DNA of 64,000 bases, taken from positions 930,001 to 994,000 of the forward strand of contig WLXD01000002.1 of NCBI GenBank assembly GCA_012103255.1. Direction: 5' to 3'. A program made the translations under genes and the position numbers. Below are positions 9,533 to 14,709 of this stretch, piece after piece. The DNA comes from Acidobacteriota bacterium. Its GTDB lineage: Bacteria; Acidobacteriota; UBA890; WLXD01. The notes under the pieces were generated by a model that did no database searches, was not told where the DNA came from, and was given only the letters and a program-made list of their open reading frames with translations. Numbering within the stretch: position 1 is the stretch's first letter; every line of letters starts with the position of its first letter.

Positions 9533-11008
9533 TCAGAGACGCAGGCCACGAGGCACGACGATCTTCTCGACGCCCCCGAAGAGGCCCTGCGCAACGAGCG
9601 CCAGGGCCGCCGCGGGAATCGCACCTTCGAGAATCAGGGCCGTGTCCGCGAGACGGATCCCGGTGAGAATCGGCTGCCCGTATCCGCCTGCCCCGATGAG
9701 CGCCCCGAGCGTCGCCGTACCGACGTTGATCACGGCAGCAGTTTTGATGCCGGCGAGGATCGACGGCGAAGCGAGTGGCAACTCGACCAGCCGAAGACGC
9801 GCGCTTGGTGACAGTCCGAGCGCATCTGCCGACTCCAGCAGGTGTGGCGAGATCGTGGTCACACCGGTCACGGTGTTCCTCAGGATCGGCAACAGGCTGT
9901 AGAGGAACAGCGCCGTGATAGCCGGCGGTGCGCCGATGCCCAGCACCGGCACCAGGAACACGAGCAGCGCCAGGGACGGGATCGTCTGGACGATCCCACC
10001 TACGCCGAGCACCAGCGCTCCGAGGCGCGGACGGTGGGCGGCCCAGAGACCGGCGGGAATCGCGAGCGCCATCGCCGCGAACAACGACACCGCGACGAGC
10101 CAGAGGTGCTCCATGGTGCGACTTGCGATGCGCTCCCCGGCGCTGTCATCCACCGCAGTCACCGCCGTACCGAAGCGATCACTCAGGAACTCCGCTGCGG
10201 CGACCTCCTCGCCGCGCCCGTCGAGACGCACCGCTGCGTTCATCGCGATCATCGCTGCCGCATCGATCGCTCCTTCAAGGTCCACGAGCGCGCTCCGGAA
10301 GCCTTCAGTCGATGCGGCTGTCACGCCGTAGAGCACGACCGCCCGATAGTCCGGGAAGAACGCGCGGTCATCCTCCAGGGCGACGAGATCGAAGGCGCGG
10401 ATCTCGGCGTCTGTCGTGTAGAGATCCGTCACGTCGAGCTCGCCTGCCGCGAGCGCCCGATACGCGAGGTCATGATCCAGCCCAGTGACAGACTCCGGTG
10501 CGAGGCGGTAGCGGTCACGGACGCCCGGCCAGCCATCCGGACGGTCCATGAACTCCGTGGAGAACCCGAACTGCAAGGGATGATTCGCCAGATCTGTGAT
10601 CGAGTTGATCCCGAGTTGCGAGGCCCGTTCTCGGAGCATTCCGAGCGCGTATGTATTGCCAAATCCCAGCGGATCACTCATCCCGACGCCCATGTCGCTC
10701 AGCGCCTCTCGTAGCGAGACAGGATCAGCGCCGACCGCGCCGCCCAGGATCTCCTGCGCGATCGTTCCGGTGTAGTCGACGTACGCATCGATCTCGCCCG
10801 CCAACAGTGCATTCCACAGCACCCGCGTGCCGCCCAGTTGACGTTCGTGGCGTGCGGGGACTCCGTAGTCTGACGCGCGCAGTCGGACGAGCTCACCGAG
10901 CACGATCCCTTCTGTGAAGGCTTTGGATCCCACGACGAGTCCCTCGGGCGCCGCGCAGCCACCCGTGGCGAATGCAGCCATGCAGACGACGCAGCCGATG
11001 AATCTCAT
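9533..11008 (-). CDS. Quaternary-amine-type ABC transporter, fused substrate-binding lipoprotein and permease
   Basis: A 491-residue fusion. The N-terminal part (about 1-285) is a lipoprotein (lipobox ATGGC) with a ProX/OpuAC-like binding fold: VVGSKAFTEGIVLGELV, GGTRVLWNALLAGEIDAYVDYTGTI and later GFSTEFMDRPDGWPG. The C-terminal part (about 300-491) is an OpuAB/OpuB-type permease with GGIVQTIPSLALLVFLVP and LPILRNTVTGV, then GALIGAGGYGQPI. Most fusions of this family that I know carry the binding domain after the permease, so the reverse order is notable. The 4-bp overlap with the ATPase confirms the pairing. Glycine betaine, choline, carnitine or ergothioneine-like ligands are family precedents; the actual ligand is unknown. 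Confidence 0.85.
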   Translation of the reverse strand: MRFIGCVVCMAAFATGGCAAPEGLVVGSKAFTEGIVLGELVRLRASDYGVPARHERQLGGTRVLWNALLAGEIDAYVDYTGTIAQEILGGAVGADPVSLREALSDMGVGMSDPLGFGNTYALGMLRERASQLGINSITDLANHPLQFGFSTEFMDRPDGWPGVRDRYRLAPESVTGLDHDLAYRALAAGELDVTDLYTTDAEIRAFDLVALEDDRAFFPDYRAVVLYGVTAASTEGFRSALVDLEGAIDAAAMIAMNAAVRLDGRGEEVAAAEFLSDRFGTAVTAVDDSAGERIASRTMEHLWLVAVSLFAAMALAIPAGLWAAHRPRLGALVLGVGGIVQTIPSLALLVFLVPVLGIGAPPAITALFLYSLLPILRNTVTGVTTISPHLLESADALGLSPSARLRLVELPLASPSILAGIKTAAVINVGTATLGALIGAGGYGQPILTGIRLADTALILEGAIPAAALALVAQGLFGGVEKIVVPRGLRL

Positions 11009-11787
11009 GGCGTCTCCAGGGAAACGCCGCGCTGCGCGCGTACGAACGCCGCTACGAATTCGTTCGCCGGCCGGCGCATGAGGTCACTCGCCGTCCCCTT
11101 CTGAACGATCCCTCCATCTCGCAACAGCACCAGCTCATCGGCCAGGTGCGCCGCCTCCGCCAGATCGTGACTCACCAGCAAAACGGTCATCTCGAGTTGC
11201 TCGAAGATGAGCTTCAGATCGTCCTGAAGTCGGGAGCGGATCATCGGATCGAGCGCGGCCATCGGTTCGTCCAGGAGAAGCACCGCCGGCTCGAGCATGA
11301 GAGCTCGCATCAGCGCCACACGTTGGGCCTGGCCGCCAGACAGTTCGCGTGGGAATCGCTCCAACAACGCCGAATCCAGATGAACGAGCTCGGCCAGCGC
11401 AGCGAGTCTTGCGGCGGTGCGATCCTCGGACCAGCCGAGGTGCCGAGCGAGCAGGGTGACGTTGTCCGCTGCAGACAAGTGAGGGAACAAACCGCCGTCC
11501 TGAATGACGTAGCCCATCCGGTGCCGCACTCCGAGCAACGAGTCCGCGGCGAGCGGCGCGCCCTCGACCCGCACACTACCCCCATCCGGAACCAGCAAGC
11601 CGTTGCACAGGCGCAGCAAGGTGGGCTTGCCGCAGCCACTCGGTCCGATCAGGGCTGTAACGCGTCCCTGGGGCACTAGGAGGTCGACGCCGTCGAGGGC
11701 AATGGCAGACCCGAAGCGCTTCACGACTCCGCGAAATTCAAGGGCGGCCGGGACGAGCGCGTCGACGCCGCCGACCGAGGCCGTCAC
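11005..11787 (-). CDS. ABC transporter ATP-binding protein (OpuAA-like) with a Walker A proline
   Basis: A 260-residue ATPase with a GTG start one base beyond the stop of the zinc-ribbon gene. The Q-loop region VIQDGGLFPHLSAADNV, signature LSGGQAQRVALMRAL, Walker B AVLLLDEPMAALD and H-loop LLVSHDLAEA are all intact and typical of the proline/glycine-betaine family. The Walker A reads GPSGCGKPTLL (48-58): the Ser or Thr that normally follows the lysine and binds magnesium is Pro55 (codon CCC at 11625-11623). One base change would restore Ser. Either the enzyme is impaired or unusual, or this is a sequence error. It pairs with the downstream fusion permease. Confidence 0.9.
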   Translation of the reverse strand: MTASVGGVDALVPAALEFRGVVKRFGSAIALDGVDLLVPQGRVTALIGPSGCGKPTLLRLCNGLLVPDGGSVRVEGAPLAADSLLGVRHRMGYVIQDGGLFPHLSAADNVTLLARHLGWSEDRTAARLAALAELVHLDSALLERFPRELSGGQAQRVALMRALMLEPAVLLLDEPMAALDPMIRSRLQDDLKLIFEQLEMTVLLVSHDLAEAAHLADELVLLRDGGIVQKGTASDLMRRPANEFVAAFVRAQRGVSLETP

Positions 11788-11788
11788 T

Positions 11789-12001
11789 TCAGTCGCCGCG
11801 TACCCGATCGAAGGTCGTGCGGCACGAATGGCAGAAGTACTGGGACGTCAGCATGTGACATCCGTACATCGATGTCGGCTCAGTTTCGGAACTGCCACAG
11901 AACGCACAGTCAACATCGGGCATCGCCTGCCGCGGCAACACCGCGCGGTGACGTTTCACCTCGCCGCCAGGCCGAGGAAAGTCGAGGACCTTGGCGGGCA
12001 T
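11789..12001 (-). CDS. Zinc-ribbon protein equivalent to the PaaD C-terminal domain
   Basis: A 70-residue protein with CAFC at 33-36 and CHSC about 20 residues later, in the context GSSETEPTS and FCHSCRTTFDRVRG. This matches the C-terminal zinc-binding tail of PaaD (typically CPxC...STxxxxxYxCxxCxxPFDYFK). In known PaaD the tail is fused behind the DUF59 domain; here that domain is a separate gene at 13098-13478 and two genes lie between them. It starts with GGAGG seven bases before the ATG and is separated by two bases from paaC. The ABC ATPase start follows its stop directly. Confidence 0.75.
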   Translation of the reverse strand: MPAKVLDFPRPGGEVKRHRAVLPRQAMPDVDCAFCGSSETEPTSMYGCHMLTSQYFCHSCRTTFDRVRGD

Positions 12002-12003
12002 CG

Positions 12004-12828
12004 TCAGTCCTCCACGCCCATCGCCCGTGCGTGAGCTCCGGTGATCATCTCGAACGACGGCGCGTCGAAGTCAGGCGCTGTCATACGGCGAGACAACGGG
12101 TCCCAGTCCGCCAGATCCGGCTCGGCGGTCAACACCCAGTCGTCGCCCTGCTGCGCGGCCCCGAGATCGAGGTCGGCCATCATCGGCAGCGTGATCGCAA
12201 TGAAGCGTCGTCTCAGCTCGGCGGCGTCGCCGTCCAGTACGCCGGCGGCGGCCAGCCTATCCAGGCTGTTGTCGCCCTCCAAGGGCCCAAACCAGGCAAT
12301 GCAGTCGCTCCAGGCGGCCCGCACTGCCGTCTCGAACCGCTCCAGAATCTCGGGGGGCGCGGTCCACATACGTTCAAACCATGCCTCGGCGTGGAGCGTG
12401 TGGTAGTGCTCTTCGGAAACGGCCTTGCGTAGCCGCTGCGCGAGCGGCGCGACGTTGCCGTTCATCGCCGACTCGAGATTCACGGTCAGCAGCACGTCAA
12501 CGAGTCCGTTGAGCGCGACCACTTGAATCCAGTCGCCGGCCGGCTTGTCGAGCGACGCCATCGACCGCCAGGTGGACATATCCGTCTGGCGAGCATCGGT
12601 CCGCGGATCTTCGTCGAGCCGACTGAGCACCCCTCGCAACAGACGAGCATGGCCGAGCTCGTACTGCGCCATCGCAGAAATCGTTACATCGGCTTCAAGC
12701 TCCGGTGCGCCGGTCGCCCACTCGGCGTAGCGCAGGCCGAGCACACGCTTGGTATCTGCGACGCTGAGCAACCAGTCCGCAAGATCGCGGCGCGATTCCG
12801 CGGGTAGATCTGTGGCCTTGTCGTACAT
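12004..12828 (-). CDS. paaC: PaaC-like ferritin-fold subunit of a phenylacetyl-CoA epoxygenase-type complex
   Basis: A 274-residue helical protein matching PaaC by length, by context and by ADWLLSVADTKRVLGLRYAE and APELEADVTISAMAQYELGH. In E. coli PaaC is a structural subunit that has lost iron ligands. Here E57xxH60 (YELGH) and E140xxH143 (EEHYH) are both present, with D111 between them at the same spacing as in the neighbouring PaaA-like protein. The helix-A glutamate position appears to be K27, so the site is not clearly complete. A GGAG lies seven bases before the ATG, and the paaB stop is nine bases upstream. Confidence 0.82.
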   Translation of the reverse strand: MYDKATDLPAESRRDLADWLLSVADTKRVLGLRYAEWATGAPELEADVTISAMAQYELGHARLLRGVLSRLDEDPRTDARQTDMSTWRSMASLDKPAGDWIQVVALNGLVDVLLTVNLESAMNGNVAPLAQRLRKAVSEEHYHTLHAEAWFERMWTAPPEILERFETAVRAAWSDCIAWFGPLEGDNSLDRLAAAGVLDGDAAELRRRFIAITLPMMADLDLGAAQQGDDWVLTAEPDLADWDPLSRRMTAPDFDAPSFEMITGAHARAMGVED

Positions 12829-12837
12829 GTCCGTCTC

Positions 12838-13050
12838 CTATCCCTCGGGATCGAGCAAGGGTTCGAGCTCGAGCACCGGAATGATCGCCGAGCGCGGTAC
12901 GACCATGAGTTCAGCCCAGTTTTCTTCGTCGTAGGTGTTCCGTGCGTAAACCCGCGCGAACACGTCACTCGACGCGCGAACCGTACCGATGTGGCCGAGG
13001 GGCTCTTCGCGCTTCTGCCTGGCGAAAACTTCGTAGAGCGTCTTGTTCAT
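12838..13050 (-). CDS. paaB: PaaB-like small subunit
   Basis: A 70-residue protein beginning with MNKTLYEVFARQKREEPLGH, the usual PaaB opening (LYEVFxRxKxGxxHxHxGS), followed by SSDVFARVYARNTYDEENWAE and VVPRSAI, which match the body of PaaB. It is shorter than the roughly 95-residue E. coli subunit and lacks its C-terminal extension. PaaB bridges PaaAC heterodimers in the known complex. Position between the PaaD-like and PaaC-like genes supports the call. Confidence 0.8.
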   Translation of the reverse strand: MNKTLYEVFARQKREEPLGHIGTVRASSDVFARVYARNTYDEENWAELMVVPRSAIIPVLELEPLLDPEG

Positions 13051-13097
13051 TCCCAGGGCCCTTCCCTACTGCCCGGACGGCCCTGACGGGCCTCCAA

Positions 13098-13478
13098 TCA
13101 GAGTGTGATGCCGTAGCGCTTCATCTCATCGCGCCCGCCACCGGAAATCCGCGCCGCGGTCCAGCTGACCTCCCAGGTCTCCTCCACGTGCACTGTCGCC
13201 ACGTCGGATTCCTTCAGGAGGCGCTTCTGAATGTCTTCCTTGATGATCGTGACGGCCGGACAGGCCGTAGACGTAAACGTCACGTCGACTTCGACGGAGC
13301 CGTCGAGCCGACGGATGTCGCAGATCAGACCGAGGTCCACGATGTTGACGGGGATCTCGGGGTCGAGCACCTCTCGAAGCGCTTCCCACAGGGTCGCCGT
13401 TTCAGGACGGATCTTCTGTGCAACGTCTGCAGACTGCATGTTGCGCAGACGCTCGGCGATCGCTTCGCAGACGGCCAT
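13098..13478 (-). CDS. paaD: PaaD N-terminal (MIP18/DUF59) domain as a stand-alone protein
   Basis: A 126-residue protein with LWEALREVLDPEIPVNIVDLG, TSTACPAVTIIKEDI and the PaaD-specific ending RDEMKRYGITL. In standard PaaD, about 165 residues long, the GI-ending segment continues into a Cys4 zinc ribbon. Here the protein stops and the ribbon is encoded separately at 11789-12001. DUF59 proteins act in Fe-S or metal-centre assembly, and PaaD is needed for epoxygenase activity. The ATG follows the paaA stop immediately (TAGATG), so translation is coupled. Confidence 0.82.
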   Translation of the reverse strand: MAVCEAIAERLRNMQSADVAQKIRPETATLWEALREVLDPEIPVNIVDLGLICDIRRLDGSVEVDVTFTSTACPAVTIIKEDIQKRLLKESDVATVHVEETWEVSWTAARISGGGRDEMKRYGITL

Positions 13479-14417
13479 CTAGAGGTCCTTGAACATCCAG
13501 CGGAAATCGCCGCGTGAGCGCTGAATCTCTTCGATCATCGCCTCGTTGCGCGGACCGCGTCCCTTCCACCGTTTCACCACCTGCTCCCAGGTGATGTGCT
13601 CGTCCCAAAGCCAACGCTTGTCGATCGCGTCAAACTGAATCGGCAAGTGGTATTCCAGCTCGTACGCGGTGTCATCGGCGTTCCGATGCGCCGGCACCTT
13701 GAGTCCGAGACTCTCGCAGAACGGCACGACCTCGCCCATCCAGACCTGGCGGAGTTCGTCGTTGCTCAACCCCTTCATCTTGTAGTCGAGCTGTCCGCTG
13801 TGGGTCTTGAGCTTGTCGGGCAGGCCGAACCACTCCACCGTGAGCGGGAACATCCAGTCGACGGCCTCTTGAACGAGCTGCCGGCCGTGATCGCCACTCT
13901 CGACGATACGCTTCATCCAGCGCTGGCCATGGAGAAGATGAAATGTCTCCTCCTTGCTGACCTTCACGAGCGCGCGCTTCCACGGCCCGTAGGACGTGTT
14001 GTTGAAGACGTCGCCAAGCAGCGTGTAGCCGGCCTGGTCGTAAAGTGCGTTGGCCACGCAGAGCTCGACCCAGCTGTCGAGCGGAATGTCGAATGCGTAC
14101 GGGTACCGGAACTCGTGCGGCTCACGGTCGTACATCAGCCACTCACGATCGACGCCCAGATCCTCGAGGATGCGGTAGGCGATGTGGGCGTGCCCCATCT
14201 CGTCCTGGATGATCGCCATGGCGGAGATCATCGCGTTGACGGACGGTGCTTTGCGCGCCGCGTAGTAATACGCCGGGGCACTCAGAAGCTCGGTGTCACC
14301 AGACACGGTCACGATGTGACGGAGTTCGCGCTTGTACTCGTCCGTCATCTCGTCGACAGACTCGATCAGGCTGCCTTCTTGGACCTTCTGGCGCAGGATG
14401 GCGTCGGGGCTGCTCAC
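13479..14417 (-). CDS. paaA: PaaA-like catalytic diiron subunit of a CoA-ester epoxygenase-type complex
   Basis: A 312-residue ferritin-like protein. Diiron ligands can be placed at E43 (GDTELL), E73xxH76 (QDEMGHAH), probably D127 (ANALYDQAG) and E157xxH160 (KEETFHLLHG), the PaaA pattern. The GTG at 14417 has GGAGG seven bases upstream and is preferred over an ATG at 14465. In the known pathway PaaABCE converts phenylacetyl-CoA to its ring-1,2-epoxide using electrons from PaaE. No PaaE reductase, PaaK ligase, PaaG or PaaZ is seen here, so the substrate may not be phenylacetyl-CoA. It is the first gene of the operon that continues to 9533. Confidence 0.83.
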   Translation of the reverse strand: MSSPDAILRQKVQEGSLIESVDEMTDEYKRELRHIVTVSGDTELLSAPAYYYAARKAPSVNAMISAMAIIQDEMGHAHIAYRILEDLGVDREWLMYDREPHEFRYPYAFDIPLDSWVELCVANALYDQAGYTLLGDVFNNTSYGPWKRALVKVSKEETFHLLHGQRWMKRIVESGDHGRQLVQEAVDWMFPLTVEWFGLPDKLKTHSGQLDYKMKGLSNDELRQVWMGEVVPFCESLGLKVPAHRNADDTAYELEYHLPIQFDAIDKRWLWDEHITWEQVVKRWKGRGPRNEAMIEEIQRSRGDFRWMFKDL

Positions 14418-14471
14418 GTAGTTCCTCCGAGCGGGTAGATATCCAGGGCGACCAGCGTCGGCCACCCGGTT

Positions 14472-14500
14472 ACCTTAGAACCACCCCGAAGCCCCGGCAA
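14472..14500 (-). promoter_or_regulatory. Weak promoter candidate for the paa-like operon
   Basis: On the minus strand TTGCCG (14500-14495) and TAAGGT (14477-14472) are separated by 17 bases, upstream of the paaA GTG at 14417. Both boxes are poor matches, so this is only a candidate within the roughly 100-base non-coding leader. Confidence 0.3.
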
Positions 14501-14514
14501 GCGCGCCACCGTGG

Positions 14515-14709
14515 CTACGACTCTTCGTCGGGCCAGCCTGCAGGGACTGGCTGCGGAGAAGCCCGCAGCATGTGTTCGAGCCGCGCCGTGCACCAGGGAC
14601 ACAGCGCGCAGTGGGCGAACACAGCAGCGGCGCGCGAGCCGCCGAGTGTTCCGTGCACATAACGAACGAGCTCCACCCGCCCAGGATGGAGCTCGCCCAG
14701 TTTCGGCAT
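14515..14709 (-). CDS. Small HCC zinc-finger protein, anti-sigma-like
   Basis: A 64-residue protein starting at 14709 behind AGAAGG. GRVELVRYVHGTLGGSRAAA followed by HCALCPWCTARLEHML fits the His-x3-Cys-x2-Cys zinc-binding helix of anti-sigma (zf-HC2/ZAS) domains. There is no transmembrane segment and no further domain. It lies 14 bases behind the thioredoxin-like gene, third in a short unit with the eight-cysteine peptide. A regulatory role toward an ECF sigma factor is possible, but this one is separate from the sigma/anti-sigma pair at 15756-17176. Confidence 0.6.
   Translation of the reverse strand: MPKLGELHPGRVELVRYVHGTLGGSRAAAVFAHCALCPWCTARLEHMLRASPQPVPAGWPDEES

What the first reader, a model, noticed from the sequence alone, without database searches (positions are those of the whole stretch)
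11789..14417. PaaABC-like diiron oxygenase with PaaD split into two separate genes
The PaaD DUF59 domain (13098-13478, ending RYGITL) and its Cys4 zinc ribbon (11789-12001) are complete stand-alone genes placed on either side of paaB and paaC. Both have their own start signals and the order is A-D(N)-B-C-D(C), so this is not a simple frameshift. In described phenylacetyl-CoA epoxygenases PaaD is one protein. No PaaE, PaaK, PaaG or PaaZ is present, so this may be a distinct oxygenase with a different CoA ester or other substrate.
Basis: partly seen in the sequence, partly recalled or inferred. Interest (0 to 1): 0.78.

Follow-up and report, generated by a model that had tools for sequence, protein, structure and literature searches.

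The report
Third lineage of PaaABC-type aromatic oxygenases
An Acidobacteriota genome carries a small operon for an oxygen-using iron enzyme that belongs to a widespread but apparently undescribed third branch of the enzymes that open aromatic rings attached to coenzyme A; its assembly factor PaaD is always encoded as two separate genes in a fixed order, and the neighbouring genes of its relatives point to benzoate-like rather than phenylacetate substrates.

Summary
On the minus strand five tightly packed genes run A - DUF59 - B - C - Cys4 ribbon, followed by an importer. It is not a local rearrangement: in 80 loci from many phyla, 70 show the complete order A-D(N)-B(-B)-C-D(C), the other 10 are cut by contig ends, and none has a fused PaaD. 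Thermus and haloarchaeal plasmids carry the same order, with the ribbon often unannotated. The PaaA-like subunits form their own clade beside BoxB and canonical PaaA. They keep all six diiron ligands, lack PaaA's lysine bridge (Lys68/Glu49), and carry two BoxB-type second-shell residues. Clade neighbours are enoyl-CoA hydratases, aldehyde dehydrogenases, benzoate-CoA ligases and 4-hydroxybenzoyl-CoA-reductase-like genes. None of 18 host genomes has BoxB above cut-off; 13 have benzoate-CoA ligase. Best reading: a third lineage of CoA-ester aromatic epoxidase acting on benzoyl-type CoA esters, with split PaaD as its maturation pair. The focal substrate is unproven. New variant of a known kind.

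The parts
13479..14465 (-). PaaA-like diiron oxygenase subunit; ligands E59, E89, H92, D143, E173, H176
   Evidence: PF05138 198.6 bits, below the TIGR02156 PaaA cut-off (147 vs 280); AlphaFold pLDDT 88.9, nearest solved fold PaaA, TM 0.75-0.87
13098..13478 (-). PaaD N-terminal part: stand-alone DUF59 protein, D39-P-E41 and C73-P74 conserved
   Evidence: PF01883; best NCBIfam model is haloarchaeal PaaD NF041868, 82.5 bits, below cut-off
12838..13050 (-). PaaB-like bridging subunit, 70 aa
   Evidence: PF06243 28.0 bits vs cut-off 27; 29 relatives have a second tandem copy
12004..12828 (-). PaaC-like subunit that keeps all six ligand letters (E36, E57, H60, D111, E140, H143)
   Evidence: PF05138 132.8 bits; EEHDEH in 46 of 80 clade members; AlphaFold pLDDT 88.5, PaaC/PaaA fold
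11789..12001 (-). PaaD C-terminal part: stand-alone Cys4 zinc ribbon
   Evidence: PF23451 42.3 bits; NF041869 paae_haloarch and TIGR02159 C-terminus as sub-cut-off hits
11005..11787 (-). ABC importer ATPase, starts right after the ribbon stop codon
   Evidence: PF00005; ProV-like; same linkage in G007, locus L050
9533..11008 (-). ABC importer, substrate-binding domain fused to permease
   Evidence: PF04069 + PF00528; nearest solved proteins are ProX and ergothioneine transporter EgtUC

Best explanation
The operon encodes a multicomponent diiron oxygenase of the PaaABC architecture that belongs to a third lineage beside canonical phenylacetyl-CoA epoxidase (PaaA) and benzoyl-CoA epoxidase (BoxB). 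A is the catalytic subunit, C its paired subunit (possibly metal-binding itself) and B the bridge. The DUF59 protein and the Cys4 ribbon act together as the PaaD-type factor that loads or protects the metal centre. The most likely reaction across the lineage is epoxidation of the ring of a benzoyl-type CoA ester, followed by enoyl-CoA-hydratase-type ring opening and aldehyde dehydrogenase oxidation, as in the Box pathway. Shown: composition, fixed gene order, separate clade, intact ligands, loss of the lysine bridge, neighbourhood. Inferred: CoA-ester epoxidation, substrate class, role of split PaaD. In the focal genome the electron donor and downstream genes are unlinked and the exact substrate is open.
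For: Order A-DN-B(-B)-C-DC complete in 70/80 loci, the rest cut by contig ends, 0 fused. Same order in Thermus, haloarchaeal and Agrobacterium plasmids. Monophyletic clade, support 98/94, separate from PaaA and BoxB. Six ligands in 86-87 of 87. PaaA Lys68 becomes Ile in 81/87 and Glu49 becomes Tyr in 85/87; BoxB Thr119 is T in 85/87 and Ser123 is S in 86/87, where canonical PaaA has S and G (residue roles from PMC4498308 and PMC5489048). Neighbours: ECH at 48/80 loci, ALDH at 33/80, 10 of 11 tested AMP ligases of clade loci above the benzoate-CoA ligase cut-off, molybdenum-hydroxylase genes at 6 loci, the one tested best matching 4-hydroxybenzoyl-CoA reductase. Of 18 host genomes: BoxB over cut-off 0, canonical-strength PaaA 1, benzoate-CoA ligase 13, PaaK 0. 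Focal genome: benzoate-CoA ligase 626 bits and no BoxB-like match.
Against: BoxB Gln116, which holds the benzoyl-CoA carbonyl, is Ser in 81/87, and Thr210 is Tyr or Phe. PaaY-like genes in 12 loci and PaaK-like genes in some genomes fit phenylacetate instead. The predicted fold is closer to PaaA than BoxB. The focal operon has no linked ligase, hydratase or reductase, and its importer is of the betaine/ergothioneine type. TIGR02262 is a family model that includes other aryl-CoA ligases.
Confidence: 0.55

Rival explanations
1. It is a divergent phenylacetyl-CoA epoxidase: same substrate as PaaABCE, merely an old lineage with split PaaD and missing linked genes.
For: Same subunit set; fold nearest PaaA; PaaY-like genes in 12 loci; PaaK-like ligases under E 1e-80 in 8 of 18 genomes; a paak_haloarch-like ligase beside some loci.
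Against: No PaaK above cut-off in 18 genomes and none in the focal genome. Lysine bridge lost. G171 and the genome of L069 carry both a canonical and a split set, which suggests different substrates. Linked ligases are mainly of the benzoate type.
Confidence: 0.2
2. In the focal Acidobacteriota order the enzyme was recruited to another compound brought in by the linked OpuB/EgtU-type importer, for example a betaine-like or aromatic quaternary amine later bound to CoA.
For: Importer genes follow the ribbon with a 1-nt gap and are linked again in G007 (L050). The binding domain resembles ProX/EgtUC. ECH and ALDH are not linked here, unlike elsewhere.
Against: The same-genus genomes G001 and G002 (L042/L053, L043/L052) have a zinc alcohol dehydrogenase in that place, not the importer. 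PaaA residues stay typical of the clade.
Confidence: 0.15
3. The split is an artefact: a frameshift or recent rearrangement of a normal fused PaaD.
For: None found.
Against: B and C lie between the two halves; the same order is conserved in Bacteria and Archaea with no fused member.
Confidence: 0.01

Closest known systems
1,2-phenylacetyl-CoA epoxidase PaaABCE with PaaD (E. coli, Klebsiella)
   Same: A, B, C subunits of the same families, six diiron ligands, DUF59 plus Cys4 ribbon accessory
   Different: Order A-B-C-D-E with fused PaaD; has the Lys68/Glu49 bridge; PaaC ligand site degenerate; PaaA about 25-30% identical
Haloarchaeal PaaABCDE (NF041868 PaaD, NF041869 PaaE; Haloferax gibbonsii)
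   Same: PaaD split into a DUF59 protein and a small ribbon protein
   Different: Order A-B-C-D(N)-D(C); its PaaA is canonical (lysine bridge present) and belongs to the canonical PaaA clade
BoxB benzoyl-CoA 2,3-epoxidase
   Same: Six ligands, Thr119 and Ser123 equivalents, no lysine bridge; expected pathway partners ligase, crotonase, ALDH
   Different: BoxB is about 475 aa, works without PaaB/PaaC-type subunits, has Gln116; not the nearest fold
Thermus thermophilus pTF24b/pTF19b paaA_2 - paaC_2 cluster
   Same: 55.6% identical A; same order A-DN-B-B-C-DC; a true member of this lineage
   Different: Linked to ECH, ALDH and a LIV-type importer; annotated as phenylacetyl-CoA epoxidase, ribbon unannotated

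Membership tests
PF05138 PaaA/PaaC superfamily | Model score above gathering cut-off | tested here: met
   198.6 and 132.8 bits vs 28.5
Diiron epoxidase catalytic subunit | E, E, H, D, E, H ligand set | tested here: met
   Conserved in 86-87 of 87
1,2-phenylacetyl-CoA epoxidase (TIGR02156/02158/02157/02159) | NCBIfam equivalog cut-offs | tested here: not met
   A 147 vs 280; C 98 vs 133; B 24.8 vs 85; DN 60.2 and DC 27.7 vs 108
1,2-phenylacetyl-CoA epoxidase | Lysine bridge Lys68-Glu49 | tested here: not met
   Ile and Tyr in the clade
1,2-phenylacetyl-CoA epoxidase | PaaE reductase, PaaK, PaaZ in the genome | tested here: not met
   Nothing above cut-off
1,2-phenylacetyl-CoA epoxidase | Activity on phenylacetyl-CoA | not testable with these tools
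   Needs an enzyme assay
Benzoyl-CoA epoxidase BoxB (TIGR03225) | Model cut-off 499 bits | tested here: not met
   18.6 bits
Benzoyl-CoA epoxidase BoxB | Second shell Gln116, Thr119, Ser123, Thr210 | tested here: inconclusive
   Thr119 and Ser123 equivalents kept; Gln116 and Thr210 replaced
PaaD | DUF59 with DPE and CP motifs | tested here: met
   PF01883; D39, E41, C73, P74 100% and P40 95%
PaaD | Cys4 ribbon PF23451 | tested here: met
   42.3 vs 27 bits
PaaD | Both domains in one chain | tested here: not met
   Separate genes with B and C between; 0 of 80 loci fused

The most novel reading that the evidence does not exclude
A third, so far undescribed family of aroyl-CoA epoxidases that replaces BoxAB in BoxB-lacking bacteria of many phyla and in haloarchaea. 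It works without the PaaA lysine bridge, may carry diiron sites in both A and C, and uses a two-protein PaaD that represents the ancestral state before PaaD fused in bacterial phenylacetate operons.
Probability: 0.33. Interest if true: 0.76.

Novelty: new variant of a known kind. Interest (0 to 1): 0.6.

Why it matters
Two CoA-dependent ring epoxidases (Paa and Box) define the aerobic hybrid pathways. A third lineage found across many phyla, annotated today as phenylacetyl-CoA epoxidase or left unnamed, would change how aromatic degradation is read from genomes; a recent survey (PMC13186573) proposes PaaA and PaaC as robust markers of phenylacetate potential, and this lineage could give false positives. 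Natural loss of the lysine bridge makes its proposed role directly testable. The separate halves of PaaD offer a way to find out which half does what, an open question since PaaD is needed in vivo but not in vitro (PMC4498308).

Tried and rejected
A frameshift or rearranged fused PaaD: rejected. A PaaE candidate next to the focal benzoate-CoA ligase: the weak TIGR02160 hit lies in an NqrF-like gene of an Nqr operon, by my reading of the sequence. The second benzoate-CoA ligase of the genome sits in a kynurenine / 2-aminobenzoyl-CoA type cluster with a salicylyl-CoA 5-hydroxylase-like protein, so it is explained without the oxygenase. BoxC in the genome: only weak crotonase hits. Thermus TTHB138 (PDB 2CU6) as the split PaaD DUF59: similar to, but not the same protein as, the Thermus DN, so this idea was dropped. 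Branching order among split-A, PaaA and BoxB: either sister pairing survives the AU test (p 0.113 and 0.125), so unresolved. Literature searches found no description of the lineage, but only open-access papers are held.

Full report
WHAT IS THERE. Five minus-strand genes at 14465-11789 encode, in order of transcription, a PaaA-like protein, a stand-alone DUF59 protein, a 70-aa PaaB-like protein, a PaaC-like protein and a stand-alone Cys4 ribbon protein; an ABC importer ATPase and a fused binding-protein/permease follow with a 1-nt gap and an overlap. Pfam confirms each part, including the PaaD-specific ribbon family PF23451. NCBIfam equivalog models for PaaA, B, C and D all match, far below their cut-offs; the best DUF59 match is the haloarchaeal PaaD model, and the ribbon also matches the haloarchaeal model named PaaE. 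So a split PaaD was already recognised in haloarchaea, where Haloferax has A-B-C-D(N)-D(C).

IT IS A CONSERVED LINEAGE. The window lies in an Acidobacteriota genome, judged from the records of its nearest relatives. A profile search of GTDB genomes returned 80 best loci from Acidobacteriota, Chloroflexota (Ktedonobacterales, Anaerolineae and others), Actinomycetota (Rubrobacter, Solirubrobacterales), Bipolaricaulota, KSB1, Armatimonadota, Gemmatimonadota and more. Seventy have the complete order A-D(N)-B(-B)-C-D(C), 25 of these with two tandem B genes; the other ten end at a contig edge; none has a fused PaaD. Thermus thermophilus plasmids (A 55.6% identical), Haloterrigena, Halosolutus and Halobaculum plasmids and an Agrobacterium plasmid (A 39.8%) share the order; in several the ribbon is an unannotated ORF straight after paaC. 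Within Acidobacteriota the set is rare and patchy: about 10 of 396 genomes.

A THIRD CLADE. With C subunits as outgroup, the split-lineage A proteins form one clade (98/94) apart from canonical PaaA and from BoxB-type proteins. The order of branching of the three is unresolved. Because haloarchaeal canonical Paa also has split PaaD, and the split lineage lies outside the canonical clade, one fusion in the bacterial canonical line is the simplest history (one change against two); this is my inference and the gene orders. The BoxB rows were recognised by their motif QADTEPASVEQQ, which matches BoxB residues 116-123; three more rows are only BoxB-like.

ACTIVE SITE. All six diiron ligands of PaaA are kept (ligand list from PMC4498308). 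The lysine bridge proposed to take part in electron transfer (Lys68 with Glu49) is absent: Ile in 81/87 and Tyr in 85/87. BoxB's second-shell Thr119 and Ser123 are present (85/87 and 86/87), where canonical PaaA has Ser and Gly; BoxB's Gln116 and Thr210 are not kept. The C subunit keeps the six ligand letters in 46 of 80 members, the window's among them; a betaproteobacterial PaaC does not, a haloarchaeal canonical PaaC does. Whether C binds metal is untested. Confident models of A and C have the PaaA/PaaC fold.

NEIGHBOURHOOD AND LIKELY SUBSTRATE. Across the 80 loci the recurrent neighbours are enoyl-CoA hydratases (48 loci), aldehyde dehydrogenases (33), AMP-forming ligases (17), PaaY-like proteins (12), amidohydrolases (10), CoA transferases (7) and LIV-type importers. 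Of 11 clade-locus AMP ligases scanned, 10 exceed the benzoate-CoA ligase family cut-off; a Haloterrigena one falls just short (370 vs 375). Six loci carry molybdenum hydroxylase genes; the one tested has 4-hydroxybenzoyl-CoA reductase as its best model, below cut-off. Among 18 host genomes, BoxB is never above cut-off, canonical-strength PaaA appears once (L069's genome), benzoate-CoA ligase is above cut-off in 13 and PaaK in none. This pattern is what one expects if the complex does the BoxAB job. It is circumstantial, and the loci are not all independent.

THE FOCAL GENOME. It has no PaaE, PaaK or PaaZ above cut-off and no BoxB-like match. It has two benzoate-CoA-ligase-family proteins, one in a kynurenine / 2-aminobenzoyl-CoA type cluster and one unlinked. 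In relatives of the same genus and family (L052-L054) a zinc alcohol dehydrogenase lies at the ribbon; in the window a homologue lies at 6968-5922, beyond the importer and a plus-strand permease gene. The importer resembles ProX and EgtUC. The focal substrate is therefore the weakest part of the case.

VERDICT. Split PaaD alone is known in haloarchaea; the separate A-D(N)-B-C-D(C) lineage, its loss of the lysine bridge and its benzoate-type context are what is new here as far as the tools reach. It should be filed as a new variant of the PaaABC/BoxB kind, not as a phenylacetyl-CoA epoxidase.

Noticed in passing
29 loci, e.g. L058, L065, L112, L124: Two tandem PaaB-like genes; B2 may allow a hetero-B bridge or regulate subunit pairing.
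   Followed up: partly
L132 about 14370-14520; L133 12260-12600; L141 11270-11600; L134 10280-11070: The ribbon ORF directly after paaC is unannotated in the Thermus, Haloterrigena, Halosolutus and Agrobacterium plasmid records.
   Followed up: yes
window 12838-13050: The PaaB-like protein weakly matches NCBIfam TIGR04031 'rSAM-partnered candidate RiPP' (26.4 bits, below cut-off); that family may in fact be PaaB-like.
   Followed up: no
G000 C6 about 442-452 kb (L157 9348-18763): Cluster with benzoate-family CoA ligase, salicylyl-CoA 5-hydroxylase-like protein and a protein that reads like tryptophan 2,3-dioxygenase: probable tryptophan to 2-aminobenzoyl-CoA pathway.
   Followed up: partly
L134 (Agrobacterium tumefaciens pAtCFBP5499b): Distant member (39.8%) on a conjugative plasmid beside an AMP ligase, CoA transferase, importer and coniferyl aldehyde dehydrogenase: possibly lignin-derived substrates.
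   Followed up: partly
L143 (Alteromonas mediterranea pAMDE1): Single PF05138-like protein beside a radical SAM protein and a MaoC dehydratase, no C or B partner annotated: another divergent branch.
   Followed up: no
window 9533-11787: Importer with the binding domain N-terminal to the permease in one chain, ProX/EgtU-like; linked to the oxygenase in G007 too but not in same-genus genomes.
   Followed up: partly
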